Assembly (NCBI GenBank): GCA_030746635.1
Contig: JASLMH010000023.1
Location: forward strand, 1-39,215
Direction of reading: 5' to 3'
Length of the DNA: 39,215 bases
Source: Alphaproteobacteria bacterium
GTDB taxonomy: Bacteria > Pseudomonadota > Alphaproteobacteria > GCA-2731375
Shown here: positions 5,082 to 37,005 of the stretch, one piece after another
Layout: every line of letters begins with the position of its first letter
How positions within the stretch are numbered: the stretch's first letter is position 1
The notes under the pieces: model-generated
Database searches by the model: none
The model's input: the letters and a program-made list of their open reading frames with translations, nothing else
Told to the model about the DNA's origin: nothing
Translations under genes and position numbers: made by a program

Positions 5082-5099
5082 TTGGTAGATGATTTGCAA
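5082..5099 (+). promoter_or_regulatory. Sigma-54 (-24/-12) promoter of the first PEP-CTERM gene
   Basis: The sequence TTGGTAGATGATTTGCAA has GG and GC dinucleotides separated by exactly 10 nt, and a TTGCA block at -12. The sigma-54 consensus is TGGCAC-N5-TTGCW. The -24 half is imperfect (TGGTAG instead of TGGCAC). The predicted transcription start is near 5109, 48 nt before the ATG. An unrelated sigma-54 element precedes the second PEP-CTERM gene, which strengthens this call. Confidence 0.6.
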
Positions 5100-5101
5100 T
5101 A

Positions 5102-5141
5102 CTCCTACAGCAGGCGAGCCATTGTGGAGAGCCTGTAGGAG
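5102..5141. repeat. Perfect 9-bp inverted repeat around the start site of the PEP-CTERM gene
   Basis: CTCCTACAG (5102-5110) is repeated inverted as CTGTAGGAG (5133-5141) with a 22-nt spacer. The right arm overlaps the purine-rich ribosome-binding region (GGAGAGGGGGG) of the gene starting at 5157. If transcription starts near 5109, only the inner part (CAGGC at 5111 with GCCTG at 5131) would form a hairpin in the mRNA. The full repeat would then act as a DNA operator. Function is unknown. Confidence 0.55.
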
Positions 5142-5156
5142 AGGGGGGATTCAAGA

Positions 5157-5822
5157 ATGTCTATCCAATTACAATGGACGATGGGGCCGGCCGGCCATCG
5201 TGTCTCTGTCAAGCCGGTTTTGGCTGGAATCGTACTGATTTTCGCTGCAATGCTGATGGTTTTTCCGGCGCGGGCATCGGTCGTTCACGTGTTTTCCGGC
5301 GGCCAATTGGTTGGCGCGGAAAACGTGGACGTCGGCGGTACGCTTTATGATGTCACGTTTGGGGATGGAACCTGCGTCGGCCTTTTCGACGGTTGTGACG
5401 CCCTGTCGGATTTTGCCATTACGGATGCCAGTACCGCCTTGGCCGCTGCCGATGCGCTGCTTGATCAGGTTCTTTTGGACGTCGGGTTGGGCCTGTTCGA
5501 TACAGATCCCACGCTGACCAGCGGCTGCAGCGAGGTCGGTTTACAATGCGTAATGATCATACCGTACGGTTTTGATGTCCTACCTGGAGACCCGAACGTG
5601 GCGGCGGCGATCAACTCCGTACCGGAAGCATCCGATAACTTCGGCCTTGCCGGTTCGGTCGGCCCGAACATCGACACCGGCACCTCCACGACCGCCACCT
5701 ACGCCCGTTTCACCGTCGCCGCGACGGCGACACCCGAGCCGGCGAGCTTGGCCCTGTTCTCATTGGCGATGGCCGGGCTAGTGGGTGGGCTTGCGCGGCA
5801 GCGTCGAACGAAACATCGATAG
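5157..5822 (+). CDS. PEP-CTERM sorting-domain protein
   Basis: This is a secreted 221-residue protein of unknown function. The N-terminus has a long signal region (hydrophobic stretch about residues 21-40, ending FPARASV). The C-terminus has the PEP-CTERM tripartite signal: PEP at 193-195, a hydrophobic helix (LALFSLAMAGLVGGLA) and a basic tail (RQRRTKHR). Exosortases recognise such tails and process the protein during export; no exosortase gene lies in the window. The middle part is Asp/Gly/Ala-rich with four Cys (about residues 75-130) and no recognised domain. A strong GGAGAGGGGGG ribosome site precedes the ATG. Upstream are a sigma-54-type promoter and an inverted repeat. Its 3' end overlaps, antisense, the run-on tail of the neighbouring dehydrogenase frame. 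Confidence 0.88.
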   Translation: MSIQLQWTMGPAGHRVSVKPVLAGIVLIFAAMLMVFPARASVVHVFSGGQLVGAENVDVGGTLYDVTFGDGTCVGLFDGCDALSDFAITDASTALAAADALLDQVLLDVGLGLFDTDPTLTSGCSEVGLQCVMIIPYGFDVLPGDPNVAAAINSVPEASDNFGLAGSVGPNIDTGTSTTATYARFTVAATATPEPASLALFSLAMAGLVGGLARQRRTKHR

Positions 5823-5867
5823 CCGAGCGAACCGTCTCTGGGTCCGCCGCGTCGTTTCGGTCTGGCC

Positions 5868-6838
5868 CTAATCCTGCGGTGGCACAGGAGTGACACCGGC
5901 TTGCCGGCGAAATGCGCGCGCAGATTGTCGTAGACCAGGTCGGCCATGGCGCGACGGGTTTCGTGGGTGGAAGCGGCGATATGCGGTGTCAGCACCACGT
6001 TCTCCATGGCCATCAGTTCGGCCGGGACTTCAGGTTCGCCGTCGAACACGTCGAGCGCCGCGCCGGCGATGCGACCATCCCGCAGGGCCGTGACCAAGGC
6101 CGGCTGATCGACGATGGTTCCCCGCGCCGCGTTGATCAGGAACCCGGCAGGCCCCAGCGCGTCCAGCACGACGGCGTCGACCAGCCCGCGGTTGGCCTCG
6201 CCGCCGTCACAGGCGACCAGCAGGATATCGCTGGCCGCCGCTAGGTCGAGCAAGGTCGGATAGGATCGGTACGTCAGGTCGCCCATCGGCTTGATATCGT
6301 GATAGGCGATGTTGAGACGGAAGACCTCGGCGCGACAGGCAACGGCGGTGCCTATTCGACCAAGACCAAGGATGCCGAGCCGCTTGCCGCGCACCGTCGT
6401 GCCAAGGTCCATTCGGCCCCGCAGCCAGTTGCCGGCACGGAGATAGCGCTCGGCCTCGCCGATCGGTCGCGGCGCCATCAGAATGAAGGTCATGGCCAGA
6501 TCGGCGACATCGCCGGTCAGCACTTCCGGCGTATGGGTCACGATGACGCCACGGGCCTGGGCCGCGACCACGTCCGTTGAGTCAAAATTGACGCTGAACG
6601 AAGCGATGATCTTCAGGCACTCCAATCGGTTGATAAGGTTGGCATTTGGGCCTTTCATGCCGCCCGCCAGGATGTCGCGAATGCGCGGGCCGATGTCGGC
6701 AAGACGCCTGTCCGGGTCGGCCGGATCGACGAAGTCGTGCAGCCTGAATTCTTCTTGCAGCCGTTCGACCAGGAACGGCGGCAACAGCGAAACCTGCAAC
6801 AGATCGATCACGCCCGCCTCCATTTGTGCCATTTGCAC
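5868..6838 (-). CDS. D-isomer-specific 2-hydroxyacid dehydrogenase, probably frameshifted at its C-terminus
   Basis: An NAD-dependent dehydrogenase of the D-3-phosphoglycerate/glyoxylate reductase type. It has the Rossmann motif LGILGLGRIG (about residue 154-163), and the catalytic Arg (R239 in NAARGT), Glu (E268 in DGEPE) and His (H286 in TPHIAAS). The homologous part ends at AGKPV, residue 315, which is the normal length. The reading frame then runs on for 64 Arg-rich residues to 5699, entering the antisense of the PEP-CTERM gene. One added base just after AGKP would instead give a short end (GVTPVPPQD) and a TAG at 5870-5868, so I take 5868 as the original stop. The start is GTG at 6838; ATGs at 6832 and 6823 are alternatives. 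The substrate is not predictable. Confidence 0.8.
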
Positions 6839-6943
6839 GGTGGCAATGATGCTAGCGGGAGTATCAATCCCGATCCAGTTTCAGGCCCCAGGGCAGCGTC
6901 TCGCGATCAGCGCTTTCGCGATCCCTTGCCTATGTCCACTCAA

Positions 6944-6964
6944 ATTAACTGATATTCAGTTAAT
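6944..6964. promoter_or_regulatory. Perfect 21-bp palindrome, candidate operator between divergent genes
   Basis: ATTAACTGA (6944-6952) and TCAGTTAAT (6956-6964) are perfect inverted half-sites around a TAT centre. The site lies in the 216-bp AT-rich gap between the dehydrogenase (start 6838, minus) and pdhA (start 7055, plus), 90 bp before pdhA. It has the look of a dimeric repressor site. It does not match the E. coli PdhR consensus and the TTAA halves are 11 bp apart, so it is not a CtrA site. The cognate regulator is not in the window. Confidence 0.6.
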
Positions 6965-7054
6965 CACGACTTTTTCATTGTCTGTAAAGGGTTTTTGCCG
7001 TTTCAATAGGCGCCCGAGAGGTCGGCGGGCGGTGTGCTGGGGGATCGAGACGCG

Positions 7055-8068
7055 ATGGCGAAAACGACGCGCCGCAGGCGCAAGACGGCCCCGGCGGCGG
7101 TGGCCGCGACGGTCGACGAGGTCCTGGGCTACTACCGCGAGATGCTGTTGATCCGGCGCTTCGAGGAGAAGGCCGGGCAGATGTACGGCATGGGCCTGAT
7201 CGGCGGTTTCTGCCACCTCTACATCGGCCAGGAAGCCGTCGTCGTCGGCATGCAGGCGGCGATCGGCGAGGGCGACACGGTGCTGACCAGCTACCGCGAT
7301 CACGGCCACATGCTGGCCTGCGGCATGGACGCCAAGGGGGTGATGGCTGAGTTGACCGGCCGCGCGGGGGGTTATTCCAAGGGCAAGGGCGGCTCGATGC
7401 ACATGTTCAGCCGCGAACGCAACTTCTACGGCGGCCACGGCATCGTCGGCGCCCAGGTGCCGATCGGCACCGGCTTGGCCTTCGCCCATCGCTACCGCGA
7501 GACCGACCGGCTGTCTCTGACCTATTTCGGCGACGGCTCGGCCAACCAGGGCCAGGTCTACGAATCCTTCAACATGGCCGCCTTGTGGCAGTTGCCGGTG
7601 GTCTACATCGTCGAGAACAACCAATACGCCATGGGCACCGCCGTCGGCCGCGCCTCGGCCCAGACCGAGCTGTTCCGGCGCGGCGAGAGCATGGGCATCC
7701 CCGGCATGCAGGTCGATGGCATGGACGTCCTGAAGGTCAGGGCGGCCGGCGATCAGGCGGTCAAACACGTGCGCGCCGGCAAGGGGCCGATCCTGCTGGA
7801 GATGAAGACCTACCGCTACCGCGGCCATTCGATGTCCGACCCGGCGAAATACCGCACCAAGGAGGAGGTCCAAAGGGTCCGCTCGGAACGCGACCCGATC
7901 GATCAGTTGCGCGAGAACATCCTGGAGGCCGGCCAGGCGGACGAGGCGGCCCTGAAGGAGATCGACCGCGAGGTCAAGGACATCGTCACCGAGGCCGCCG
8001 AATTCGCCCAGCAGAGCCCGGAACCGGATCCGGCCGAGCTCTACACCGACGTTCTGCTGGAGGCCTAG
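7055..8068 (+). CDS. pdhA: Pyruvate dehydrogenase E1 component, alpha subunit
   Basis: With PdhB this 337-residue subunit forms the thiamine-diphosphate-dependent E1 that decarboxylates pyruvate. The ThDP/Mg motif runs from [12 protein letters not shown] to [10 protein letters not shown]. The conserved phosphorylation-loop-like segment [15 protein letters not shown] is present. The ATG at 7055 is preceded by GGGGGAT at a good distance; a GTG at 7034 in the same frame is less likely. It heads a co-directional cluster pdhA-pdhB-pdhC-lpdA-lipA with short gaps, so one operon supplies the complex and its lipoyl cofactor. Confidence 0.96.
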
Positions 8069-8075
8069 GCACGCC

Positions 8076-9446
8076 ATGCCGATCAGTATTCTGATGCCGG
8101 CGTTGTCGCCGACCATGACCGAGGGCACGGTGGCCAACTGGCTGGTGGCCGAGGGCGACAAGGTGGGCCCCGGCGACCTCATCGCCGAGATCGAGACCGA
8201 CAAGGCGACCATGGAGGTGGAAGCGGTGGACGAGGGCGTCGTCGGCCGCATATTGGTTCCGGCGGGGACGGAGAACGTCGCCGTCAACACGCCGATCGCC
8301 CTACTGCTGGCGGACGGCGAGGCCGCCAGCGACCTGGACGCCGCGCCGCCGCCGCCGGCCATACCCGCCGCGCCCGCCGTGGCCGAACCGCCGGCGCCGG
8401 CCGTGCCCGCCGCGGTCGCCGCCGCGCCGCCGCCCCTGGAGGCCGAGGTGCCGGCCGGCACCGCCATGGTGGCGATGACGGTGCGCGATGCCCTGCGCGA
8501 CGCCATGGCCGAGGAGATGCGCCGCGACGGGAATGTCTTCCTGATGGGCGAGGAGGTCGCCGAATATCAGGGCGCCTACAAGATCAGCCAGGGCCTGCTG
8601 GACGAGTTCGGCCCGCGGCGGGTGATCGACACGCCGATCACCGAACACGGTTTCACCGGCCTGGGCGTCGGCGCCGCCTTCGGCGGCCTGCGCCCGATCG
8701 TCGAGTTCATGACCTTCAACTTCGCCATGCAGGCGGTCGACCAGATCGTCAATTCGGCCGCCAAGACCCTGTACATGTCGGGCGGCCAGATGAACTGCCC
8801 GATCGTCTTTCGCGGCGCCAACGGCGCCGCCAGCCGGGTCGCCGCCCAGCATTCGCAATGCTATGCCTCGTGGTATGCCCATTGCCCGGGCTTGAGCGTG
8901 GTCGCGCCCTACGACGCGGCCGACGCCAAGGGCCTGTTGAAATCGGCGATCCGCGAGCCCAATCCGGTGATCTTCCTGGAGAACGAGATCCTCTACGGCC
9001 GCTCGTTCGAGGTGCCGGACCTGGACGACCACGTGGTGCCGATCGGCCGGGCCCGGATCGTCCGGTCCGGCAGCGACGTCACCATCGTCGCCTTCTCGAT
9101 CGCCGTCGATTGGTCGTTGCAGGCGGCCGAGCTGCTGGCGGCCGAGGGCATTTCGGCCGAGGTCGTCGATCTGCGCAGTTTGCGGCCGCTGGACCTGCCG
9201 ACGCTGCTGCAATCGGTGGCCAAGACCAACCGCTGTGTCACCGTCGAGGAAGGCTGGCTCGGCTGCGGCATCGGCGCCGAGGTCGCGGCCCGGGTCATGG
9301 CGGCGGCCTTCGACGACCTGGATGCGCCGGTGGCGCGGGTCGGCGGCGCCGATGTGCCCATGCCCTACGCCGCCAACCTCGAAAAACTGGCCCTGCCCGA
9401 CGCCGAGGCGATCGCCGCCGCGGCCCGGGCGACCTGCTACCGCTAA
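8076..9446 (+). CDS. pdhB: Pyruvate dehydrogenase E1 beta subunit with an N-terminal lipoyl domain
   Basis: This 456-residue protein begins with a lipoyl domain (residues 1-80, lipoyl Lys43 in [12 protein letters not shown]). An Ala/Pro-rich linker (about 88-130) follows, then the E1-beta transketolase core (about 133-456; [51 protein letters not shown]). An extra lipoyl domain on E1-beta is a known alphaproteobacterial arrangement. Its lipoyl domain is nearly identical, down to the DNA, to that of the downstream E2. The start lies 8 bp after the pdhA stop. Confidence 0.96.
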
Positions 9447-9483
9447 GGTCCACCGACAACGTCAAAACGACAGGAATTCGAAG

Positions 9484-10824
9484 ATGCCGATCACCATCAC
9501 CATGCCCGCCCTGTCGCCGACCATGACCGAGGGCACGCTCGCCAAATGGCTGGTGGCCGAGGGCGGCGCCATCGCCCCCGGCGACGTCATCGCCGAGATC
9601 GAGACCGACAAGGCGACCATGGAGGTGGAGGCGGTGGACGAGGGCGTACTGGCCCGCATCCTGGTGGCCGAGGGTAGCGAGGGCGTGGCGATCAACACGC
9701 CGATCGCCATCATCCTGGAGGACGGCGAGGATGCCTCGGCCCTGGACGACTATGCGCCCGCGGCCGGCACCGCCGCCGCGCCGCCAACGGAAGCGCTGCC
9801 GGAGGAGTCGCCGGCCGAGGTGGCGGTGGCGGCGGCATCGACAACAGGGGAGGCAACAGCCATGGCAACAGCGGAGGCCCCGGCCAGGGCCGGCCGCGTG
9901 GCGGCCAGTCCGCTGGCCAAACGGATGGCGGCCCAGGCCGGCCTGGATCTGGCCAGCATCGTCGGCAGCGGGCCGAACGGACGCATCGTCAAGGCCGACG
10001 TGGAGGCGGCGATACAGGCAGCACCTGTCGCAGCCGCCGCGGCGGCACCCCCGACCCCAACCGCGGCGCCGGCGACGGCAGCCGCGCCCGTACCCGCACC
10101 TGCCGTACCGATTTCGGCCGAGGCGGCGGCGCTGGAGCCGCCGTTCGAACTGGAGCCCCACAGCGGCATCCGCAAGACCATCGCCCGGCGCCTGACCGAG
10201 GCCAAGCAGACCGTGCCGCACTTCTACATGACGGTGGACTGCGAACTCGACGCCCTGCTGGCCCTGCGGGCGGAACTGAACCAGCGGGCCAACGGTGCCT
10301 TCAAGCTGTCGGTCAACGATCTGCTGGTCAAGGCGGTGGCGGTGGCCCTGGCCAAGGTGCCGACCGCCAACGTTTCCTATGCCGAGGACGGCCTGAAACG
10401 CTACCGCCGGGCCGATGTCTCGGTCGCCGTGGCCACCGACCGCGGCCTGATCACCCCGATCGTGCGGGATGCCGGCGGCAAGGGCCTGGAGGCGATCTCG
10501 GCCGAGACCAGGGCCCTGGCGGAGAAGGCCAGGGACGGCAAATTGATGCCCGAGGAGTACCAGGGCGGCACCTTCACCATCTCCAACCTGGGCATGTACG
10601 GGATTAGGCAGTTCGATGCGGTGATCAACCCACCGCAGGCCTGCATCCTGGCCGTCGGTGCCGGCGAACAACGGCCGGTGGTCAAGGACGGCGCGCTGGC
10701 CACCGCGACGGTGATGTCGTGTACCCTGTCGGTCGACCATCGCGCCGTCGACGGCGCCATCGGCGCCGAATTCCTGGCCGCCTTCAAGGGGCTGGTGCAG
10801 GACCCGATGACCATGTTGTTGTAG
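9484..10824 (+). CDS. pdhC: Dihydrolipoamide acetyltransferase, pyruvate dehydrogenase E2
   Basis: E2 core of the pyruvate dehydrogenase complex, moving the acetyl group from lipoamide to CoA. In 446 residues it has one lipoyl domain (1-80, Lys43), an Ala/Pro linker, a peripheral-subunit-binding domain (about 138-175; [31 protein letters not shown]), a second linker, and the catalytic domain (about 215-446) with the active-site His419 in DHRAVDG. The ATG at 9484 follows AGGAATTCGAAG and starts the lipoyl domain exactly as in PdhB. The longer open frame upstream overlaps pdhB and is not used. Confidence 0.96.
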
Positions 10825-10840
10825 CCGCAGGATCGCCGCC

Positions 10841-12241: not shown

Positions 12242-12247
12242 GGGGAT

Positions 12248-13688: not shown

Positions 13689-13715
13689 GCCGATCAGCTC
13701 CCGGCCAATGGCCGC

Positions 13716-14231: not shown

Positions 14232-14266
14232 GACGGTAAGGTGTTGAAATCAAATACATAATGGTC

Positions 14267-17695: not shown

Positions 17696-17696
17696 C

Positions 17697-22590: not shown

Positions 22591-24029
22591 GCCGGGGTAC
22601 CGTTCTGATCGCCGACGACGACCGCGCCATTCGCACCGTGCTGGACCAGGCCCTGGGCCGGGCCGGCTACGAGGTGCGTTCGACCTCGAACGCGGCGACG
22701 TTGTGGCGCTGGGCCAGCGACGGCCAGGGCGATCTGGTGATCACCGACGTGGTGATGCCGGACGAAAACGGCCTCGATCTGCTGCCGCGGATCAAGAAGA
22801 TCCGGCCGGAGATGCCGATCATCGTGATGAGCGCGCAATCGACCATCATGACGGCGATCAAGGCGGCCGAGCGCGGGGCGCATGAATACCTGCCCAAGCC
22901 GTTCGACCTGAAGGAACTGATCAACGTGGTGCAGCGCGCCCTGGCCTCGGCCACGCGCACCCGGGGCACCTCGGCCCGGGCCGAAGCGGCCGACGAGGCG
23001 ATGCCACTGATCGGCCGCTCGGCCGCCATGCAGGATATCTACCGCACCCTGGCCCGGCTGATGCAGACCGATCTGACGGTGATGATCACCGGCGAATCCG
23101 GCACCGGCAAGGAACTGGTCGCCCGCGCCCTGCACGACTACGGCAAGCGGCGCAACGGCCCCTTCGTCGCCGTCAACATGGCGGCGATCCCGCGCGAACT
23201 GATCGAGGCCGAGCTGTTCGGCCACGAGAAGGGCGCCTTCACCGGTGCCGCCGTGCGCAACGTCGGCCGCTTCGAACAGGCCGAGGGCGGCACCCTGTTC
23301 CTGGACGAGATCGGCGACATGCCGCCCGAGGCGCAGACCCGGCTGCTGCGCGTCCTGCAGCAGGGCGAGTACACCACCGTCGGCGGCCGCACGCCGATCC
23401 GCACCAACGTTCGGATCATCGCCGCCACCAACCGCGATTTGCGGCAACTGATCCGCGGCGGCCTGTTCCGCGAGGATCTGTTCTATCGCCTCAACGTCGT
23501 GCCCATGCGCCTGCCGCCGCTGCGCGAACGCACCGAGGACATCCCGGACCTGGTGCGGCATTTCCTGCAACTGGCCGAGGACGAGGGCCTGCCCCCGAAA
23601 CGGATCGCCCGCGACGCCATCGAGCGGCTGCGCGGCTATGACTGGCCGGGCAACGTCCGCGAGTTGGAGAACCTGGTGCGCCGTCTGGCCGCGCTCTATC
23701 CCGAAGAGGTCATCGGCCTGGACGTGGTCGACACCGAGTTGGGCGGCGCGCCCATCGAGACGGGTGCCGGCGGCGGCGATGGCGACAGCATCGGCGGTTC
23801 CGTCGAACGCCACCTGTCCCGCTACTTCACCGCCCACGGCGACGCCCTGCCGCCGGCCGGCCTCTATGGTCGGGTGTTGCGCGAGGTCGAGCGGCCGTTG
23901 ATCGAGCTTTGCCTGGCGGCGACCCGGGGCAACCAGATCAAGGCGGCGCAGTTGCTCGGCCTGAACCGCAATACGCTCAGAAAAAAGATCAAGGAGTTGG
24001 AGATTCAGGTGGTGCGCGGCCTGAAGTGA
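22587..24029 (+). CDS. ntrC: Nitrogen response regulator NtrC (sigma-54 activator)
   Basis: This 480-residue transcription factor activates sigma-54 promoters when phosphorylated. The receiver domain has D54 ([12 protein letters not shown]). The AAA+ domain has Walker A GESGTGKE, the sigma-54-contacting loop GAFTGA (216-221), and Walker B LFLDEIGD. The C-terminus is a Fis-type HTH ([20 protein letters not shown]). The start at 22587 overlaps the ntrB stop (ATGA) and follows GGGAGAGGAGG. Because sigma-54 promoters occur elsewhere in the window, this protein or a relative is a candidate activator. Confidence 0.96.
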
Positions 24030-24093: not shown

Positions 24094-26373
24094 ATGGTCG
24101 AAACGACAGATCAAACCTGGTTGGAAGTGGCATTTTCCCGACGGTTCGTGCCCTGGGCGCAACGGGTGCGGCTGACCGGCAAGCTGGCCATCGGCCTGGC
24201 CCTGGCGACGGCCGCCTCGGGGGTCGCCACCTATACCGCCTGGACCGGCACGGCGCCGCAGACGCCCAACCCGCGCCTGGTGCTGGGGCTGCTGGTGGTC
24301 GATCTGGTGTTGGTGCTGTCGCTGGGCGCGCTGATCGCCCGGCAACTGGTGCGCTTGTGGGTGGCACGGCGTAGCGGCTCCGCCGGCTCGCGCCTGCACG
24401 GCCGCTTCGTCGCCCTGTTCAGCCTGGTGGCGGTGACGCCGGCGATCATCGTGGCGCTGTTCTCGGCCGTGTTCTTTTACCTCGGCGTGCAGTCCTGGTT
24501 CAGCGAGCGGGTGCGCACGGCGGTGGGCGGCTCGCTGGCGGTGGCCGAGGCCTACATGCAGGAACATCGCCACACCATCCGCGCCGATATCCTGGCCATG
24601 GCCAACGTGGTCGACCGCCTGGACCCCCGGCTGCGGGACAAGCCGGCGGCGCTGTCGCGTCTGTTGGCGATCCAGGCGGCCCGGCATTCGCTCAGCCAGG
24701 CCACGGTGTTCGACGGCAGCGGCAACATCAAGGGCCAGACCTACCTGAGTTTCAGTTCCGCCTTCGACGATCCGCCGCTGGACCGGATCGCCCAGGCCAG
24801 CCGCAGCGATCCGCTGATCTTCACCGGCGGCGCCGACGACGAGGTGCGGGCGCTGATCCGCCTGGACAGTTTTCTCGACGCCTATCTCTACGTCTCGCGC
24901 TTCGTCGATCCGGTGGTGTTGAGCTATGTCGAACGGACCCGCGCCGTGGTCAGCGAATACGAGGCCCTGGAAGGTGCCCGTTCGGACATCCAGCTGACCT
25001 CGGCGCTGATCTTCATCGTCGTTGCCCTGATGCTGCTGCTGGCGGCGATCTGGCTGGGCCTGACCTTCGCCAACCGCCTGGTCGGGCCGATCCGCGGTTT
25101 GATGATGGCGGCCGAGCGGGTGCGCGACGGCGATCTTTCGGCCCGGGTGCCCGAGGGCGACGCCGGCGATGAAATCGGCTCGCTCAGCCGGGCCTTCAAC
25201 CGCATGACCGGCCAACTGGCGGCGCAGCGCGAGGAACTGGTCGAGGCGAACCGGCAGATGGACCGACGCCGCCGCTTCACCGAGGCGGTGCTGTCCGGGG
25301 TCTCCGCCGGCGTCGTCGGGCTGGATGGCGACGGCGTGATCAACCTGCCCAACCGCTCGGCCGCCGAGTTGCTGGAGACCGGTCCGGAAAACCTGATCGG
25401 CAGCCGTTTTGCCGAGGCGGTGCCCGAGATGGCGGCACTGCTGGCCCAGGCCCGCCAGCGCCCGGACCATATCGTCGAGGGACAGATTTCGCTGGTCCGC
25501 AAGGGCCACCGCCGCACTTTCATGGTGCGGGTCAGCACCGACCGCACCCAGCACGACCGCTTCGGCTACGTGGTGACCTTCGACGACGTCACCGAATTGG
25601 TGACGGCGCAGCGGACGGCGGCCTGGGCCGACATCGCCCGGCGCATCGCCCACGAGATCAAGAATCCGCTGACCCCGATCCAGTTGTCGGCCGAACGCCT
25701 GAAGCGGAAATACCTGGCGCAGATCAAGATCGAGCCCGACGTCTTCACCCAGTGCACCGACACCATCATCCGCCAGGTCGGCGACATCGGCCGCATGGTC
25801 GACGAGTTCTCGGCCTTCGCCCGGATGCCGGCGGCGGAGATGAAGAACAACGATCTCTGCGAGATCGCGCGCGACGCCGTGTTCGCCGAACAAATCGCCC
25901 ACGGCGATGTCGACTACCAGATCGATCTGCCGGAGGCGCCTCTGGTCATCCGCTGCGATGCCCAGCATGTCGGCCGGGCGCTGACCAACCTGCTGCGCAA
26001 TGCCGAGGAGGCGATCGACGGCCGGCCGGCGGCGGCGGGCGAGGCATTGCCGGGCGGTCTGATCCGGGTGCTGGTCCGCCGGGACGGGCGCCGGGTCAGC
26101 CTCGAGGTGCGGGACAATGGCCGCGGCCTGCCCGCGGAAGGCCGCGAGCGGCTGACCGAGCCTTATGTGACCCTTCGCGACAAGGGCACCGGGCTGGGCC
26201 TGGCCATCGTCCAGAAAATCGCCGAGGAGCACGGCGCGCGTCTGTACCTTGAGGACGACGAGGGCGGCGGGGCCTGCGCGCGATTGACGTTTGAGATTGC
26301 CGCCGGCGGCCGGGCGAAGACGGTCGCCGACGATGTGACGGAGCAGGGTGGGGTTTCCTCGTATGGCGCGTGA
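24094..26373 (+). CDS. ntrY: Membrane sensor histidine kinase NtrY
   Basis: This 759-residue membrane kinase is the partner of NtrX. Three hydrophobic segments near the N-terminus (about residues 25-130) precede a periplasmic region, and a further helix lies near 305-330. A HAMP domain (about 325-385), a PAS domain (about 395-500) and the HisKA domain with H520 (RRIAHEIKNPLTPIQLSAER) follow. The ATPase domain has NLLRNAEEAI, DNGRGLP and GTGLGLAIVQKI. NtrYX in alphaproteobacteria responds to nitrogen and oxygen/redox conditions. The 64-bp gap after ntrC contains a small GCCGG-CCGGC inverted pair. It overlaps ntrX by 11 bp. Confidence 0.95.
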   Translation: MVETTDQTWLEVAFSRRFVPWAQRVRLTGKLAIGLALATAASGVATYTAWTGTAPQTPNPRLVLGLLVVDLVLVLSLGALIARQLVRLWVARRSGSAGSRLHGRFVALFSLVAVTPAIIVALFSAVFFYLGVQSWFSERVRTAVGGSLAVAEAYMQEHRHTIRADILAMANVVDRLDPRLRDKPAALSRLLAIQAARHSLSQATVFDGSGNIKGQTYLSFSSAFDDPPLDRIAQASRSDPLIFTGGADDEVRALIRLDSFLDAYLYVSRFVDPVVLSYVERTRAVVSEYEALEGARSDIQLTSALIFIVVALMLLLAAIWLGLTFANRLVGPIRGLMMAAERVRDGDLSARVPEGDAGDEIGSLSRAFNRMTGQLAAQREELVEANRQMDRRRRFTEAVLSGVSAGVVGLDGDGVINLPNRSAAELLETGPENLIGSRFAEAVPEMAALLAQARQRPDHIVEGQISLVRKGHRRTFMVRVSTDRTQHDRFGYVVTFDDVTELVTAQRTAAWADIARRIAHEIKNPLTPIQLSAERLKRKYLAQIKIEPDVFTQCTDTIIRQVGDIGRMVDEFSAFARMPAAEMKNNDLCEIARDAVFAEQIAHGDVDYQIDLPEAPLVIRCDAQHVGRALTNLLRNAEEAIDGRPAAAGEALPGGLIRVLVRRDGRRVSLEVRDNGRGLPAEGRERLTEPYVTLRDKGTGLGLAIVQKIAEEHGARLYLEDDEGGGACARLTFEIAAGGRAKTVADDVTEQGGVSSYGA

Positions 26374-27742
26374 TATTCTGATTGTTGACGACGAAGCCGA
26401 TATTCGCGACCTGATCGCCGGCATCCTCAACGACGAGGGCTACGATACCCGGCTGGCCGGCAACGACGCCGAGGCGCTGGCGGCGTTGGCCCATCGCCGG
26501 CCGTCGATGGTCATCCTCGACATCTGGCTGCACGGCAGCGAACTGGACGGTCTGGAATTGCTGCAACGGATCCGTGACGACCATGCCGACCTGCCGGTGG
26601 TGATGATTTCCGGCCACGGCAACATCGAAACCGCTGTTCAGGCCATCAAGCTGGGCGCCTACGACTATATCGAGAAGCCGTTCAAGACGGACCGCCTGCT
26701 GCTGATCGTGCAAAGGGCGATCGAGGCCGCCCGCCTGGCCCGCGAGAACCGGGAGTTGCGGCGGCGGGCCGGCCCGGAGACCGAGATCATCGGCAACAGT
26801 GGCGCCATCAGCGCCATGCGCGCGGTGATCGGCAAGGTGGCGCCGACCGGCAGCCGGGTGATGATCAGCGGCCCCGCCGGCGCCGGCAAGGAAGTGGTGG
26901 CGCGGGCCCTGCATGGCCATTCCGATCGGGGCAACGGTCCCTTCGTGGTCCTGAACGCGGCCACCATGGCGCCCGAGCGGGTCGAGAAGGAGTTGTTCGG
27001 GGTCGAACAGGAGGCCACGGCCGGAGGCGGCGACCGGGTCGGTGTGTTCGAACGCGCCCACGGCGGCACCCTGTTCCTGGACGAGGTCGCCGACATGCCG
27101 ATGGAAACCCAGGGCAAGGTGCTGCGGGTGCTGGTCGACCAGATCTTCCAGCGGGTCGGCGGTACCGGCAACGTATCCGTCGACGTCCGCGTCGTCTGTT
27201 CGACCACCCGCGACCTGCGCGAGGAGATCGCCCAGGAACGATTCCGCGAGGATCTCTACCACCGCCTCAACGTGGTGCCGGTGGCGGTGCCGCCGTTGCG
27301 CGAGCGCCGTTCCGACATCCCGTTGCTGATCGGCCATTTCATGCAGCGCTCGGCGGAGACCCTGGGCCTGTCGCCGCGCCAGGTCTCGGCCGATGCGATG
27401 GCCGCCCTGCAGCGCCACGATTGGCCCGGCAACGTCCGGCAGTTGCGGAATATCGTCGAGCGGCTGTTGATCATGGCGCCGGACGGCGCCGAGGCGATCG
27501 GCGTCGAGATGCTGCCGGCGGAAATCAACGCGCCGACGCCCAGCGCCAACCGCGGCAACGGCGAGCAGGAGGTGATGGGGCTGCCGTTGCGCGAGGCGCG
27601 GGAGATCTTCGAACGCGAGTACCTGGTGGCGCAGATCAGCCGCTTTGGTGGTAACATATCGCGGACCGCCGAATTCGTCGGCATGGAACGTTCGGCGCTG
27701 CACCGCAAGCTCAAGTCGCTGGGCGTGACGACGCGGCCCTAG
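26363..27742 (+). CDS. ntrX: Response regulator NtrX, lacking the GAFTGA loop
   Basis: This 459-residue NtrC-family regulator has a receiver domain with D53 (MVILDIWLHG), an AAA+ domain with Walker A SGPAGAGKE (169-177) and Walker B LFLDEVADMP, and a C-terminal Fis-type HTH (GNISRTAEFVGMERSALHRK). The loop after ELFG reads VEQEATAGGGD (214-224) where sigma-54 activators have GAFTGA, so direct sigma-54 activation is not expected. Degenerate or absent GAFTGA has been noted in other alphaproteobacterial NtrX proteins. The ATG at 26363 lies inside the ntrY end. Confidence 0.95.
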   Translation: MARDILIVDDEADIRDLIAGILNDEGYDTRLAGNDAEALAALAHRRPSMVILDIWLHGSELDGLELLQRIRDDHADLPVVMISGHGNIETAVQAIKLGAYDYIEKPFKTDRLLLIVQRAIEAARLARENRELRRRAGPETEIIGNSGAISAMRAVIGKVAPTGSRVMISGPAGAGKEVVARALHGHSDRGNGPFVVLNAATMAPERVEKELFGVEQEATAGGGDRVGVFERAHGGTLFLDEVADMPMETQGKVLRVLVDQIFQRVGGTGNVSVDVRVVCSTTRDLREEIAQERFREDLYHRLNVVPVAVPPLRERRSDIPLLIGHFMQRSAETLGLSPRQVSADAMAALQRHDWPGNVRQLRNIVERLLIMAPDGAEAIGVEMLPAEINAPTPSANRGNGEQEVMGLPLREAREIFEREYLVAQISRFGGNISRTAEFVGMERSALHRKLKSLGVTTRP

Positions 27743-27768
27743 CCGCCGTCAGGGAGAACAATTCGGCC

Positions 27769-29145: not shown

Positions 29146-29172
29146 CCGGGCCGGCCAGGAATCAATTCGGTG

Positions 29173-30624: not shown

Positions 30625-30670
30625 TGCCGTACCGGCCTAGCCGGGTGGGGAAGCGGGCTGGCCAAGCCGC

Positions 30671-30699
30671 CGCGATCCTGCGATCGAAGCAGGATCGCG
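30671..30699. repeat. Perfect 10-bp inverted repeat between trkH and dat
   Basis: CGCGATCCTG (30671-30680), 9-nt loop, CAGGATCGCG (30690-30699). The stem would be very stable in RNA. No U-run follows, so it is either a non-canonical terminator after trkH, a leader structure ending 20 nt before the dat ATG, or an intergenic repeat. Confidence 0.6.
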
Positions 30700-30719
30700 C
30701 CAACGATAGGAAATCCGCC

Positions 30720-31589
30720 ATGAGCCGCGTCGCTTACGTCAACGGCCGCTATCTGCCGCACCGCGCGGCCAGCGTGCATATCGAGGATCGTGGCTATCAG
30801 TTCGCCGACGGGGTGTACGAGGTGATCGCCGTCGCCGACGGCGCCCTGGTCGATGGCGAATGGCACCTGCAGCGCCTGCGGCGTTCGCTGGACGAGCTGG
30901 CCATGCGGATGCCGATGTCGCCGTCGGCGATGGCGGTGGTGTTGCGCGAGACGGCGCGCCGCAACCGGGTCGACAACGGCATCGTCTATATGCAGGTGAC
31001 CCGGGGCGTGGCCCGCCGGGACCATCCGTTCCCGCCCGCGGCCGTCCGGCCGGCCCTGGTGGTCACCGCCCGCCGCGGCCCGGCCCGGCCGCCGGCGGTG
31101 CTGGATGAAGGCATACGCGTGCTGTCGCTGCCGGATATCCGCTGGCAACGCTGCGACATCAAGTCGGTCTCGCTGCTGCCCAACGTCCTGGTCAAGCAGG
31201 CGGCGCGGGAAGGCGGTGCCTACGAGGCCTGGCAGGTCGACGACGGCGGCTACGTCACCGAGGGCAGTTCGACCAATGCCTGGATCATCGACCAGGACGG
31301 CACCCTGATCACCCGGCCGGTCGAGAACGCCATCCTGAACGGCATTACCCGGCGGCACCTGATCGAACTGGCGCGCGCCGCCGGCATCGCGGTGGCGGAA
31401 CGTCCCTTCACCCTGGACGAAGCCAAGGCGGCGCGGGAGGCATTCATCACCAGCACCACCTCGTACGTGCTGCCGGTGGTGCAAATCGACGACAGCGTGC
31501 TGGGCAACGGCCGGCCCGGCAGCGGCAGCCTGCGCCTGCGGGCGATGTATCTCGATTTCATGGCCGGCGCGGCGGCGGCGACCGCCTGA
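30720..31589 (+). CDS. dat: D-amino-acid aminotransferase
   Basis: A PLP-dependent fold-type IV aminotransferase of 289 residues, likely interconverting D-alanine/2-oxoglutarate and D-glutamate/pyruvate for cell-wall precursors. It has the start VAYVNGRYLPHRAASVHIEDRG, the catalytic Lys in CDIKSVSLLPNVLVKQ, the Glu region VTEGSSTNAWII and the PLP phosphate loop NGITRRHLIELA. Branched-chain aminotransferases are related, but the GYQFADGVYEVI segment fits D-AAT. AGGAAA precedes the ATG. In related genomes this gene lies between the ntr/trk genes and hfq. Confidence 0.9.
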   Translation: MSRVAYVNGRYLPHRAASVHIEDRGYQFADGVYEVIAVADGALVDGEWHLQRLRRSLDELAMRMPMSPSAMAVVLRETARRNRVDNGIVYMQVTRGVARRDHPFPPAAVRPALVVTARRGPARPPAVLDEGIRVLSLPDIRWQRCDIKSVSLLPNVLVKQAAREGGAYEAWQVDDGGYVTEGSSTNAWIIDQDGTLITRPVENAILNGITRRHLIELARAAGIAVAERPFTLDEAKAAREAFITSTTSYVLPVVQIDDSVLGNGRPGSGSLRLRAMYLDFMAGAAAATA

Positions 31590-31703
31590 ATAGCCGGTCG
31601 CGGCGGGCGATCACTTCATCGGCATTTACCCTCTTGCCGATTGGCGTGGCGACCCCATCTGACTTATTACTAGAAGGTTGGCGCACTATTCAAAGCGGAA
31701 CGG

Positions 31704-31721
31704 GACCGGGTTGTCCCGGTC
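31704..31721. repeat. Short hairpin in the hfq leader region
   Basis: GACCGGG (31704-31710), loop TTGT, CCCGGTC (31715-31721). It lies in the 224-bp gap upstream of hfq. The rest of the gap holds only weak promoter-like hexamers (for example TTGGCG and TTATTA, 17 nt apart, near 31643-31671). Hfq is autoregulated through its leader in some bacteria; no direct evidence for that here. Confidence 0.4.
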
Positions 31722-31813
31722 GTTCGCGTGCGCCCGCCGCATCAACACCGCCGCCAACGGCCGCGACGGCGTTGCAATAACCATAACCGGAGCCGAACAA
31801 CCTGGAGCCCAAC

Positions 31814-32068
31814 ATGGCAAACGAAAAACAAAACGTTCAGGACGTCTTTCTCAACCACGTCCGCAAGGCGAAGACCCCCGTCACCGTGTTCCTGGTAAAC
31901 GGCGTAAAACTGCAGGGTTTCATCTCTGGCTTTGACAATTTCTGTGTCCTGCTGCGGCGTGACGGCCATGTGCAGCTCGTCTACAAACACGCGATCTCGA
32001 CGGTGATGCCGGCCCAGCCGATCCAGCTTTACGAGGCCCAGGCCGAAGAGGCTGAAGCGCCGGCGTGA
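31814..32068 (+). CDS. hfq: RNA chaperone Hfq
   Basis: An 84-residue Sm-like protein forming hexamers that pair small RNAs with mRNAs. It has the Sm1 motif ([39 protein letters not shown]) and the Sm2 motif [10 protein letters not shown]. The C-terminal tail is short (about 18 residues, Glu/Ala-rich), as usual in alphaproteobacteria. Its stop overlaps the GTG start of hflX by 4 bp (GTGA), the classic hfq-hflX arrangement. Confidence 0.97.
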
Positions 32069-33399
32069 GCAAACCCGACGGGCACGACTGGGCCGCCGAA
32101 AGCCGCCGTGCCCTGATCCTCCATCCCCACGGCAAGGCCGCCGGCCCGGCCCGGCGGCGCCTGCCCGAGGCGCGGCTGGAGGAAGCCGCCGGACTGGCGG
32201 CGGCCATCGGCCTGCAAGTCGTGCGGGCGGAGACCGTGACCCTGGCGCGGCCCCGGCCGGCCACCCTGCTGGGCGCCGGCAAGGTCGATGAATTGCGGGC
32301 GCCGATCGCCGCCGAGGAGATCGAGGTGGCGATCATCGACGGCCAATTGACGCCGATCCAGCAGCGCAACCTGGAACGGGCCTGGAACTGCAAGGTGATC
32401 GACCGTACCGGCCTGATCCTGGAGATCTTCGCCGAACGCGCCCGCACCAAGGAAGGCCGCCTGCAGGTCGAGTTGGCGCAATTGACCTATCAGCGCAGCC
32501 GCCTGGTGCGCTCCTGGACCCATCTGGAACGGCAGCGCGGCGCCCTGGGAGCGGTCGGCGGTCCCGGCGAGACCCAGATCGAGGCCGACCGGCGGATGAT
32601 CGACGACCGGGTGGTTCGCCTGCGCCGCGAGTTGGACGAGGTTACCCGGACCCGCGAACTGCACCGCAAGACCCGCCGCGACGCGCCCTATCCCGTGGTC
32701 GCCCTGGTCGGCTATACCAATGCCGGCAAATCCACCCTGTTCAACCGCCTGACCGGGGCCGAGGTGACGGCCCAGGATCAATTGTTCGCCACCCTGGATC
32801 CGACCATGCGGGCGGTCGGGATGCCTGGCGGCGGTCGGATCATCCTGTCCGACACCGTCGGTTTCGTCTCCGATCTGCCGACCCACCTCGTCGCCGCCTT
32901 CCGCGCCACCCTGGAGGAGGTGCTGGAGGCCGACGTCATCGTCCATGTCCGGGACATCGTGCATGCCGACAGCGAGGCCCAGAAGGACGACGTGCTGGAC
33001 GTCCTCGCCGATCTGGGTGTCGATGTGGCGGCCCGCGAGGCGATTGTCGAGGTCTACAACAAGATCGACCTGGCCGGCCCCGACGACCGCCAGCGGGTGG
33101 CCAACCAGGCCGCCCGGACGCCCTTGGCGGTGGCCCTGTCGGCGATCACCGGCGAGGGCTGCGAGCGGCTCCTGGAATTGATCGGCCGGCGCCTGTCCCT
33201 ACGCCACCAGGTCGTGGAACTGACGATCGACGCCGGCGACGGCGCTACCCTGGCCTGGCTGTACCGGGTCGGCGAGGTGCTGGAGCGCGAGGACCGCCGC
33301 GGCACGGCCCGCCTGCTGGTCAGCCTCGACCCGGCCAACCTCGGCCGCGTGCGCAAACGCCTGAACCTGCCCGACGATTTGGCGGCGGCGGCGGAATAG
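32065..33399 (+). CDS. hflX: Ribosome-associated GTPase HflX
   Basis: This 444-residue GTPase splits or rescues stalled ribosomes, notably under heat stress. The N-terminal HflX domain has the conserved [18 protein letters not shown] near its end. The G domain has G1 [10 protein letters not shown]3 [10 protein letters not shown] and G4 NKID. A C-terminal domain follows to residue 444. The GTG start overlaps the hfq stop. Directly after the stop lies a 43-nt perfect palindrome that could end the transcript. Confidence 0.95.
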
Positions 33400-33407
33400 G
33401 GTTTGTC

Positions 33408-33450
33408 GGTATTTTCGGGGACAGGATTTAATCCTGTCCCCGAAAATACC
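33408..33450. repeat. 43-nt perfect palindrome between convergent hflX and glnK
   Basis: Two perfect 21-bp arms surround a single T at 33429. The left arm starts GGTATTTTCGGGGACAGG and the right arm (33430-33450) is its exact complement. It begins 9 bp after the hflX stop. The CGGGGACAGGATT core resembles repeats often seen near REP-associated transposases in proteobacteria. It may act as a bidirectional transcript end; the A/T-rich bases at the stem base (TATTTT / AAAATA) would help. Confidence 0.75.
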
Positions 33451-33473
33451 TATGCCCGAAATTACCCTTCGTC

Positions 33474-33496
33474 ATTGCCGGGCCTGACCCGGCAAT
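33474..33496. repeat. Palindromic repeat copy 3 (9-bp arms, 5-nt loop)
   Basis: ATTGCCGGG (33474-33482), loop CCTGA, CCCGGCAAT (33488-33496). It differs from the copy at 14267-14289 only in one loop base, and the flanking TC and CTCG are shared. It lies just downstream of glnK, 24 bp from the 43-nt palindrome. Confidence 0.75.
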
Positions 33497-33526
33497 CTCG
33501 CGCAACCCAATTCGATCTATACCTAC

Positions 33527-33865
33527 CTACAGCGCCTCGTTGTCGGATTCGCCGGTGCGGATGCGCAAGGCGCTGCCCAGGTCGTAGACGAAGATCTTGC
33601 CGTCGCCGATCTGGCCGCTGTTGGCGGCCTCGCGGATCGCCTCGACCACCCTTTCCGCCAAATCGTCCGAGACCGCCACCTCCAGCTTCATCTTGGGCAC
33701 GAAATTGATCTGGTACTCGGCGCCGCGATAGATCTCGGTATGGCCGCCCTGGCGGCCATAGCCCTTGACCTCGGTCGCGGTCAGGCCGTGCACGCCGATC
33801 GCCGTCAGGGCATCGCGCACCTGGTCCATCCGATGCGGTTTGACCACCGCCATGATCATCTTCAT
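33527..33865 (-). CDS. glnK: Nitrogen regulatory PII protein GlnK
   Basis: This 112-residue trimeric signal protein reads 2-oxoglutarate, ATP/ADP and glutamine status and blocks AmtB when nitrogen is plentiful. The T-loop is intact (GRQGGHTEIYRGAEY, with uridylylation Tyr51), and residue 54 is Asn (EYQINF), as in GlnK rather than GlnB. It is downstream of amtB on the same strand with a 40-bp gap, the reverse of the usual glnK-amtB order. It may also control NtrB activity. Confidence 0.95.
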   Translation of the reverse strand: MKMIMAVVKPHRMDQVRDALTAIGVHGLTATEVKGYGRQGGHTEIYRGAEYQINFVPKMKLEVAVSDDLAERVVEAIREAANSGQIGDGKIFVYDLGSALRIRTGESDNEAL

Positions 33866-33905
33866 CGTCCGCCCTCCAGTTGCCTATCGCTCATGGCCCG
33901 GCCGC

Positions 33906-35207
<1,302 letters not shown>

Positions 35208-35264
35208 GACACCCCCTCCGACCTTTCCGGTCTTGTTGGCACGGCCCGGACGGGCCGAATCAGT

Positions 35265-35295
35265 CGTAATGATACGTAATTTTGCCGATGTCGGC
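35265..35295. promoter_or_regulatory. Tandem CGTAAT repeat and small palindrome upstream of amtB
   Basis: CGTAAT occurs twice, at 35265-35270 and 35275-35280, one helical turn apart. It is followed by GCCGA-TG-TCGGC (35284-35295). They lie 58-88 bp before the amtB start. The region should contain the amtB-glnK promoter. A -24/-12-like sequence further upstream has 11 nt rather than 10 between GG and GC, so I do not call a sigma-54 promoter. Confidence 0.35.
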
Positions 35296-35301
35296 AGGTT
35301 T

Positions 35302-35577
35302 TCACGCCACCCTGGGCAATGGGGCGGCGAAGCGGCCAACGAACGCCGGGGCCGCCTCCCGGGCCCGTGGCGTGGCGCCGCCGAAAATGATCGGCGGATG
35401 CGGCCGTTGCACCGGCTTGGGGTAGCAGATGATGTCCTTGAACTCGACGAAATCACCATTCTGACCGGCTTTCTCATGATTCCATATTTCCTTCATGAAT
35501 TCAGTATGTTTCGCCAATAATTTAAAGTGGTTTTTGAAGTTGATGCCATGGTTCTCCATCTCCTCGGCGTTCCAGCC
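35302..35577 (-). pseudogene. Remnant of an LLM-class flavin-dependent oxidoreductase
   Basis: The minus strand encodes GWNAEEMENHGINFKNHF, then FMKEIWNHEKAGQNGDFVEF and YPKPVQRPHPPIIFGGATP. These are hallmark segments of the bacterial-luciferase-like (F420/FMN) oxidoreductases, from the middle of the about 290-residue family. The N-terminal 100 or so residues and the C-terminal 90 are missing, and the frame ends in unrelated sequence at a TGA at 35302. A recognisable internal fragment without ends is a decayed gene. Base composition here is slightly more AT-rich than in the neighbours. Confidence 0.75.
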
Positions 35578-35674
35578 GGCGCGTCCAGGCACCGGCGGGC
35601 CGGATCCGGTTTGACGCTTTCCGCCGAGCCGATCGACGGCTATCGTGATATCCGCAACAGGTAAGGGGACGATC

Positions 35675-36220
35675 ATGCAGGTATTGGGGATTTCCGGCAG
35701 CCTTCGCCAGGGCTCGTTCAACACGGCGGCCCTGCGGGCGGCCCAAGGCCTGGCGCCGGCGGGCATGATGATCGAGATCGCGGATATCTCGGCCATCCCG
35801 CTCTATGACCAGGATCTGCGGGACGCCGGATTTCCGACCGCGGCCGAGGCATTGTGCCGGCAAATCGCCGCCGCCGACGGCGTGCTGATCGCCACCCCGG
35901 AGTACAACTACTCCGTCTCCGGCGTCTTGAAGAATGCCATCGACTGGGCCTCCCGGTTCCAGCCGCAACCCTTCGACGGCAAGCCGATCGCCATTCTCGG
36001 CGCCGCCGCCGGCAGGCTGGGCACGGCCCGGGCGCAGTATCACCTGCGGCAGATCTTCGTCTTCCTCAACGGCCTGGTGATCAACAAGCCGGAAGTGATG
36101 ATCGGCAGCGCCGCCCAGGCCTTCGACGACCAGGGCAACCTGACGGATGAGATGTCGCGGGAGTTGATCGGGCAGCTATTGACGGCGCTGGCCGATTGGC
36201 AGGCCCGATTGAAAGGCTAG
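35675..36220 (+). CDS. NAD(P)H-dependent FMN reductase (ChrR/YieF-like)
   Basis: This 181-residue flavodoxin-like enzyme reduces quinones, FMN or, in some members, chromate. It has the phosphate-binding loop GSLRQGSFNTAALRAA and the family motif TPEYNYSVSGVLKNAIDWASR. The ATG at 35675 follows AAGGGGA. Family members have been shown to reduce Cr(VI), which is notable because the window also carries chrA, but that gene is 33 kb away. The stop shares the palindromic CTAG with the stop of the convergent PEP-CTERM gene. Confidence 0.9.
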   Translation: MQVLGISGSLRQGSFNTAALRAAQGLAPAGMMIEIADISAIPLYDQDLRDAGFPTAAEALCRQIAAADGVLIATPEYNYSVSGVLKNAIDWASRFQPQPFDGKPIAILGAAAGRLGTARAQYHLRQIFVFLNGLVINKPEVMIGSAAQAFDDQGNLTDEMSRELIGQLLTALADWQARLKG

Positions 36221-36945
36221 CGCCGCCGCCGCCGGCCGATCGCCAGGCCGAGCAGCGACAGCATCAAGAGCGCCAGGGGGGCCGGTTCCGGCACCGGGGC
36301 GGTAAAGCCGTAACGGATTTCATCCAGATAGAATTCCGCCTGTGCGGTCGAACTGCCGAGGCCGAAATGGATACGCACCTCGTCGCCGAGGCTGGCGCCG
36401 GAGGCATTCGCCGTGCCGCTGTAGAGCAGGCCGCCGTCCTGGTAGATCCGGAAGGCGGCACCTTCCAATTCGGCGCGATAGGTGTGGAAGGTATCCGTGG
36501 TGACCGTCGTGGCGCTGCCGCCGGTGGCCGGGCTGTTGATGCCGGAGGGGGTGAACTGGAAATCCACGTAGGTGCCCGGGACATCGCTTTCCAAGGCGAA
36601 ATAGCTGCCATATAAGCCGCTCGCGTATACCGCCTTGAGGTCCCATTCGGCGAACACCATCGAGGCGCCGGGGCTGATGGCGAAGTCCTTGAAATAGTGC
36701 GCCGCCGAGCCGCCGGCCGAGGAGAGGTCCTTCATGTGCAGGATGCCGGCCGGGTCGAGGTAGACGTGGCCCGGTTCGTAGGCCGGATAGTTGACGATGG
36801 TCCAGCCCGAGGGCTGCGGCAGCAGATCGGCGGTATAGGCGGTGAACGGATTGGCCTTGGCCACCCCGCCGGCCAGGATCAGCGCCGTCAGAATTAGCGC
36901 GGCGAGGACCTTTTTCGGCGAAATCCGGTTTATCACGTCGATCAC
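36217..36945 (-). CDS. PEP-CTERM sorting-domain protein, second copy in the window
   Basis: This 242-residue secreted protein has a signal peptide (VLAALILTALILAGGVAKA) and a C-terminal PEP-CTERM signal: PEP at 219-221, the helix LALLMLSLLGLAIG and the basic RRRRR end. The middle reads like an all-beta, concanavalin-like jelly-roll domain (YRAELEGAAFRIYQDGGLLY, FYLDEIRYGF), which would fit carbohydrate or surface binding; this is inferred from pattern only. It is unlike the PEP-CTERM protein at 5157 outside the signal. Start is GTG at 36945; GTG 36936 is an alternative. A near-consensus sigma-54 promoter lies 43 bp upstream. Confidence 0.88.
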   Translation of the reverse strand: MIDVINRISPKKVLAALILTALILAGGVAKANPFTAYTADLLPQPSGWTIVNYPAYEPGHVYLDPAGILHMKDLSSAGGSAAHYFKDFAISPGASMVFAEWDLKAVYASGLYGSYFALESDVPGTYVDFQFTPSGINSPATGGSATTVTTDTFHTYRAELEGAAFRIYQDGGLLYSGTANASGASLGDEVRIHFGLGSSTAQAEFYLDEIRYGFTAPVPEPAPLALLMLSLLGLAIGRRRRR

Positions 36946-36958
36946 TTACCCATATCGC

Positions 36959-36976
36959 GCGGCCGGCTACGGCCGC
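36959..36976 (-). repeat. Leader hairpin of the second PEP-CTERM gene
   Basis: On the transcribed strand GCGGCC, 6-nt loop, GGCCGC. It would start within 2-3 nt of the predicted sigma-54 transcription start (about 36978). The first PEP-CTERM gene also has an inverted repeat at its predicted start, with different sequence. Confidence 0.45.
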
Positions 36977-36987
36977 CACCAATAGCT

Positions 36988-37005
36988 AAGCAAATTCCGT
37001 GCCAA
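36988..37005 (-). promoter_or_regulatory. Near-consensus sigma-54 promoter of the second PEP-CTERM gene
   Basis: Read on the minus strand, TTGGCACGGAATTTGCTT matches the consensus TGGCAC-N5-TTGCW at every defined position, with GG and GC separated by exactly 10 nt. The predicted start is near 36978, giving a leader of about 33 nt. No other gene uses this orientation nearby, so it belongs to the PEP-CTERM gene. Confidence 0.85.

What the first reader, a model, noticed from the sequence alone, without database searches (positions are those of the whole stretch)
5082..37005. Both PEP-CTERM genes have their own sigma-54 promoters
Seen directly: TTGGTAGATGATTTGCAA at 5082 (plus) and TTGGCACGGAATTTGCTT at 36988-37005 (minus), each with GG-N10-GC and each in the right orientation, 43-58 bp before the start codon. 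The two genes are 30 kb apart and their mature parts are unrelated. Known: PEP-CTERM genes in Zoogloea are controlled by RpoN with the PrsK/PrsR system. Inference: the host has a sigma-54 PEP-CTERM regulon, active in an alphaproteobacterium, and possibly driven by an activator such as NtrC or a PrsR homologue elsewhere.
Basis: partly seen in the sequence, partly recalled or inferred. Interest (0 to 1): 0.7.

Follow-up and report, generated by a model that had tools for sequence, protein, structure and literature searches.

The report
Sigma-54 regulon of PEP-CTERM genes
One of the two window genes belongs to a set of about sixty surface-protein genes that share one three-part DNA switch (activator site, probable DNA-bending site, sigma-54 promoter), a control scheme first described in 2006, while the other gene's supposed switch looks like a chance match.

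Summary
Both strings are present, but they are not equal. Gene 2 (36217-36945, minus) has a perfect sigma-54 site (36989-37004). Upstream lie a 17-nt activator motif (37069-37085) matching Haft 2006 "motif 1" and an IHF-consensus element (37024-37036). Gene 1's site (5083-5098, plus) has 3 mismatches and neither upstream element. Against a profile built from other genera its score is at chance level (p about 0.08).

The genome (83% complete MAG) has about 75 PEP-CTERM genes. 55 of 84 upstream regions exceed the best of 840 shuffles (reverse strand: 1). 60 of 79 genome-wide strict sites precede PEP-CTERM genes. So the inferred regulon is real, and large.

The kind is known: Haft et al. 2006 described motif 1, the sigma-54 site and PrsK/PrsR, including in the alphaproteobacterium Rhodospirillum rubrum.

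I found no report of two features. An IHF-consensus element sits about 32 nt upstream of the -24 box, here and in promoters of other proteobacteria. Enhancer-promoter spacing is quantised in steps of about 11 bp.

PrsR, PrsK and exosortase are absent from this assembly. Because PrsR occurs in motif-rich relatives, this is probably a missing contig. NtrC is an unlikely activator. Function is inferred, not tested.

The parts
36217..36945 (-). Gene 2: PEP-CTERM protein, 242 aa, GTG start; confirmed regulon member
   Evidence: TIGR02595 22.4 bits over cut-off 16; PF07589 24.2 bits in the genome search
36989..37004 (-). Sigma-54 -24/-12 box TGGCACGGAATTTGCT of gene 2
   Evidence: Zero mismatches; profile from other genera 24.5, above all 840 shuffles
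37024..37036 (-). IHF-consensus element TAAGCCATTGTTT (8 of 9 defined bases), starting 32 nt upstream of the -24 T
   Evidence: Sequence; the same offset is enriched across the regulon and in other genera
37069..37085 (-). Activator motif 1 CGTCGGAATTCTTTACA, ending 64 nt before the -24 T
   Evidence: Sequence; fits Haft 2006 motif 1
5157..5822 (+). Gene 1: PEP-CTERM protein, 221 aa; one of four paralogues in the genome; no demonstrated regulon promoter
   Evidence: PF07589 21.5 bits; paralogues on C249, C43 and C38, of which C249 has a full regulon promoter
5083..5098 (+).
   Evidence: 3 mismatches; p=0.083 against shuffles; no motif 1 and no IHF element by inspection
22596..24029 (+). ntrC, considered as activator and judged unlikely
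   Evidence: TIGR01818 709 bits; PrsR model only 342 of 502.6
26348..27742 (+). ntrX, considered as activator and judged unlikely
   Evidence: NF051870 729 bits; PrsR model only 367 of 502.6

Best explanation
Gene 2 is one of about sixty members of a PEP-CTERM surface-protein regulon transcribed by sigma-54 RNA polymerase. A PrsR-type enhancer-binding protein, phosphorylated by PrsK, binds TGTCGRNNNNNYTTACA about 63 nt upstream of the -24 box. IHF binds a fixed site about 32 nt upstream of that box and bends the DNA, so that the activator reaches the polymerase from the right helical face. Gene 1 is a PEP-CTERM protein without a recognisable regulon promoter. Shown here: the sequence elements, their enrichment and fixed geometry, and the presence of rpoN, ihfA and ihfB. 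Inferred: binding by sigma-54, PrsR and IHF, activation, and that prsKR exists in the organism but is missing from the assembly.
For: Box: 42 of 80 PEP-CTERM upstream regions with at most 1 mismatch, shuffles about 0.1; 55 of 84 above all 840 shuffles with an independent profile; 79 strict sites genome-wide against 4 in the reversed control, 60 of them before PEP-CTERM genes. Motif 1 in 43 of those 60, spacing 62-65 nt in 40 of 43. IHF consensus at 8 of 9 or better at offset 31-32 in 45 of 60; permuted consensuses reach at most 10. In 81 promoters from other proteobacteria the same offset holds and spacings fall in three groups about 11 nt apart. rpoN present, split over two contigs; IHF alpha and beta over cut-off. 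PrsR present in the motif-rich relatives G004 and G015, and as a C-terminal half in G008.
Against: No PrsR, PrsK or exosortase in this assembly. About a third of PEP-CTERM genes, gene 1 among them, have no recognisable box. IHF binding rests on consensus match and position only. No expression data.
Confidence: 0.8

Rival explanations
1. Both window genes, gene 1 included, are driven by sigma-54; gene 1's promoter is a weak or decayed member that kept GG-N10-GC but lost the activator and IHF sites.
For: The gene 1 site ranks 8th of 78,320 window positions on the own-genome profile and is the best in its upstream region. Its paralogue C249:26594 has a full regulon promoter.
Against: Score p=0.083 against shuffled regions; three mismatches; no motif 1 or IHF element in the sequence. 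Paralogue C43:12124 also lacks a promoter.
Confidence: 0.15
2. The regulon is driven by a different enhancer-binding protein in this organism (NtrC, NtrX or the C134 protein), not by PrsR.
For: These are the response-regulator activators the assembly holds. The C134 protein lies about 3.4 kb from a PEP-CTERM gene that has a regulon promoter.
Against: Motif 1 is the published PrsR-associated motif. C134-type proteins at 78% identity occur in G002, which has no PEP-CTERM match, and the recognition helix differs from PrsR. NtrC and NtrX score far below the PrsR cut-off. Motif-rich relatives carry PrsR.
Confidence: 0.1
3. The element at -32 is not an IHF site but a binding site for another protein or an A+T-rich promoter element.
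For: In this genome the middle bases GCCA, free in the IHF consensus, are also partly conserved. The region is A+T-rich in all promoters.
Against: Across genera mainly the defined IHF positions stand out. The position is fixed to the promoter, not to motif 1, in all three spacing groups. Ten foreign promoters carry the consensus in reverse orientation 12 nt downstream, covering the same stretch; forward only 26, reverse only 10, both 1 (a comparison made after seeing the data). Permuted consensuses do not reproduce it. This genome's psp promoter carries TAAGTCATTGAAT upstream too.
Confidence: 0.2

Closest known systems
PEP-CTERM/EpsH system with PrsK-PrsR-PrsT and upstream motifs 1 and 2 (Haft et al. 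2006, PMC1569441)
   Same: 17-nt motif 1 ending TTTACA, mean spacer 62.8 nt, sigma-54 motif 2, single PEP-CTERM genes; includes R. rubrum.
   Different: About 60 promoters in one genome; an IHF-consensus element and stepwise spacing, neither mentioned in the sections read; prsK, prsR and exosortase not found in this assembly.
RpoN-dependent pepA of Aquincola tertiaricarbonis (PMC9850573)
   Same: PEP-CTERM gene with a mapped start, TGGCAC -24 motif and rpoN dependence.
   Different: A betaproteobacterium (general knowledge) and a single gene; here a genome-wide set without experiment.
IHF-assisted sigma-54 promoters such as nifH and psp of model bacteria (general knowledge)
   Same: Enhancer, IHF site and -24/-12 box in that order.
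   Different: The activator site is the PEP-CTERM motif 1 and the targets are surface proteins.

Membership tests
PrsR/sigma-54 PEP-CTERM regulon (gene 2) | -24(GG)/-12(GC) sigma-54 box before the gene | tested here: met
   Perfect match, above all shuffles
PrsR/sigma-54 PEP-CTERM regulon (gene 2) | Motif 1 ending TTTACA at 32-92 nt upstream of the box | tested here: met
   CGTCGGAATTCTTTACA, 64 nt upstream
PrsR/sigma-54 PEP-CTERM regulon (gene 1) | -24/-12 box above chance | tested here: not met
   p=0.083, three mismatches
PrsR/sigma-54 PEP-CTERM regulon (gene 1) | Motif 1 upstream | tested here: not met
   No TTTACA-type motif in the upstream sequence
PrsR/sigma-54 PEP-CTERM regulon (this genome) | prsR (TIGR02915) in the genome | tested here: inconclusive
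   Not found over cut-off in an 83% complete assembly
PrsR/sigma-54 PEP-CTERM regulon (this genome) | prsK (TIGR02916) in the genome | tested here: inconclusive
   Not found over cut-off
PEP-CTERM/exosortase system (this genome) | Exosortase (PF09721) | tested here: inconclusive
   None in the assembly; present in 8 of 41 genomes searched
IHF-assisted promoter | IHF consensus at a fixed place between enhancer and box | tested here: met
   45 of 60 promoters at offset 31-32; permuted consensus maximum 10
IHF-assisted promoter | IHF genes in the genome | tested here: met
   ihfA and ihfB over cut-off
IHF-assisted promoter | Measured IHF binding and IHF-dependent activity | not testable with these tools
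   Needs a footprint or reporter experiment

The most novel reading that the evidence does not exclude
The organism runs a regulon of about sixty PEP-CTERM promoters without PrsR/PrsK and without a recognisable exosortase, using an unknown activator for the same motif 1 and an unknown sorting enzyme. A relative, G003 (same family, estimated 100% complete), also has 14 PEP-CTERM matches but no exosortase or PrsR match over cut-off, so this is not excluded.
Probability: 0.1. Interest if true: 0.75.

Novelty: new member of a known kind. Interest (0 to 1): 0.45.

Why it matters
It gives a large single-genome set of PEP-CTERM promoters and suggests that this regulon, sketched in 2006, has a stricter architecture than described: activator site, probable IHF bend and sigma-54 box, with helically phased spacing, kept across several classes of proteobacteria. 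That makes the control of PEP-CTERM surface and floc proteins directly testable (IHF dependence, PrsR footprint). The promoter also marks PEP-CTERM-type genes that score below the Pfam cut-off.

Tried and rejected
NtrC or NtrX of the window as the regulon activator: judged unlikely on motif and family scores. The C134 enhancer-binding protein as a PrsR substitute: rejected on its distribution in relatives and its recognition helix. The C240 activator turned out to be a PspF-like protein divergent from pspA. Gene 1's site as a regulon promoter: not supported. A sigma-70 alternative for gene 1: a scan of 4900-6000 found none. RNA features: none in the window. A first regular expression for motif 1 was wrong (counted 0 of 60) and was corrected. 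A literature search for IHF with PEP-CTERM gave three papers that by title and abstract are not about PEP-CTERM promoters; they were not read in full.

Full report
OBSERVATION. Both genes encode proteins with an N-terminal hydrophobic segment and a PEP-CTERM tail. The sites are not of equal quality. The minus-strand site TGGCACGGAATTTGCT is the only perfect match to TGGCACGNNNNTTGCW in the window. The plus-strand site TGGTAGATGATTTGCA has three mismatches and is one of 57 such matches where 66 are expected.

The window lies on contig C155 of a 5.08-Mb assembly of 306 contigs, 83% complete. It has about 75 PEP-CTERM matches, against 0 to 19 in 40 relatives. I fetched the stretches around them. 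In 80 upstream regions the best GG/GC-containing site had 0, 1 or 2 mismatches in 21, 21 and 7 cases. Dinucleotide shuffles gave 0, 0.09 and 1.04, and the reverse strand 0, 0 and 2. With a profile built only from promoters of other genera, 55 of 84 regions scored above every one of 840 shuffled regions, against 1 on the reverse strand. Gene 2 is among them; gene 1 is not (p=0.083). Over the whole genome, TGGCAYRNNNNTTGC occurs 79 times against 4 for the reversed control, and 60 of the 79 precede a PEP-CTERM gene, some of them below the Pfam cut-off. The regulon is real; gene 1 is not a demonstrated member.

ARCHITECTURE. The promoters share more than the -24/-12 box. Motif 1, TGTCGRNNNNNYTTACA, ends 62-65 nt before the -24 T in 40 of the 43 promoters that carry it; the others lie at 53, 73 and 85 nt, roughly one or two helical turns away. 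A third element, consensus CTAAgcCaTTGaaTT, starts 31-32 nt before the -24 T and fits the IHF consensus YAANNNNTTGATW (the E. coli consensus WATCAANNNNTTR read on the other strand; general knowledge). At least 8 of 9 defined bases match at that offset in 45 of 60 promoters; permuted consensuses reach at most 10. Gene 2 has all three: motif 1 at 37069-37085, the IHF-like element at 37024-37036 (8 of 9) and the box at 36989-37004. Both IHF subunit genes and rpoN are present.

OTHER BACTERIA. At least 50 are followed by a PEP-CTERM-like open reading frame by a simple pattern, with several loci too short to tell. The spacings fall into three groups, 49-54, 60-66 and 73-75, with none at 55-59 or 67-72; none of 2000 uniform controls was as periodic. 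The scan ended at 75, so the last group is truncated. The IHF consensus is enriched at the same 31-32 offset in all spacing groups, so it is fixed to the promoter and not to motif 1. Ten further promoters carry it in reverse orientation 12 nt downstream, which covers the same stretch; forward and reverse forms occur together only once. This last comparison was made after seeing the data.

ACTIVATOR. The PrsR model finds four sigma-54 activators in the assembly, all below its cut-off: NtrC and NtrX of the window, a PspF-like protein on C240, and an NtrC-family protein on C134. prsK and exosortase are also not found over cut-off. A close orthologue of the C134 protein occurs in G002, which has no PEP-CTERM match, and its recognition helix differs from PrsR. 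Among relatives, motif 1 is frequent in G015, G008 and G004 (23, 13 and 6 copies). G004 and G015 have PrsR over cut-off, with exosortase on the same contig. G008 has a PrsR C-terminal half with a near-identical recognition helix, directly before a TPR gene that looks like prsT. The simplest reading is that a prsK-prsR-exosortase block is missing from this assembly. That is an inference: G003, estimated 100% complete, has 14 PEP-CTERM matches and no exosortase or PrsR match over cut-off.

KNOWN AND NEW. Haft and colleagues described motif 1, the 62.8-nt mean spacer, the sigma-54 motif 2 and PrsK/PrsR/PrsT in 2006, including R. rubrum. RpoN dependence with a mapped start was shown for pepA of Aquincola. 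The finding is therefore a large new instance of a known kind. The IHF-like element and the stepwise spacing are not in the sections of the 2006 paper that I read, and my literature search turned up no paper on them; most subscription journals are not in that library.

MECHANISM. PrsK senses an unknown signal and phosphorylates PrsR; PrsR binds motif 1; IHF bends the intervening DNA; PrsR remodels the sigma-54 closed complex; many PEP-CTERM proteins are made together. The DNA elements, their enrichment and geometry are shown. Protein binding and function are inferred.

Noticed in passing
whole genome G000 and relative G003: About 75 PEP-CTERM matches and no recognisable exosortase in this assembly; G003, estimated 100% complete, has 14 PEP-CTERM matches and likewise no exosortase match.
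   Followed up: partly
L076:17051-18921 (contig C240): pspA with a divergent PspF-like gene; a strict sigma-54 site with an IHF-like TAAGTCATTGAAT upstream and no motif 1, which serves as an internal control for the IHF reading.
   Followed up: partly
contig C237:27580 minus (L162): Strict sigma-54 site with an IHF-like element but no motif 1 before an open reading frame that reads as a GGDEF (diguanylate cyclase) protein, possibly under another activator.
   Followed up: no
contig C253:11866 and 12201 minus (L057): Two complete regulon promoters in tandem, 335 bp apart, with no obvious PEP-CTERM reading frame within 1.3 kb downstream.
   Followed up: no
contigs C26:14330, C54:12932, C267:21426, C270:23775, C273:13841, C133:27353: Strict sigma-54 sites, most with motif 1, before genes with PAP-, AEP- or PEP-type tails that were not in the PF07589 hit list; the promoter can find such genes.
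   Followed up: partly
L309:9452-10899 (G008 contig C254): Only the C-terminal part of PrsR reads on, preceded by unrelated sequence and followed by a TPR gene like prsT; misassembly or a real truncation.
   Followed up: partly
window 38789-39199 minus: Open reading frame resembling the C-terminal part of a tyrosine recombinase (integrase) near the contig end.
   Followed up: no
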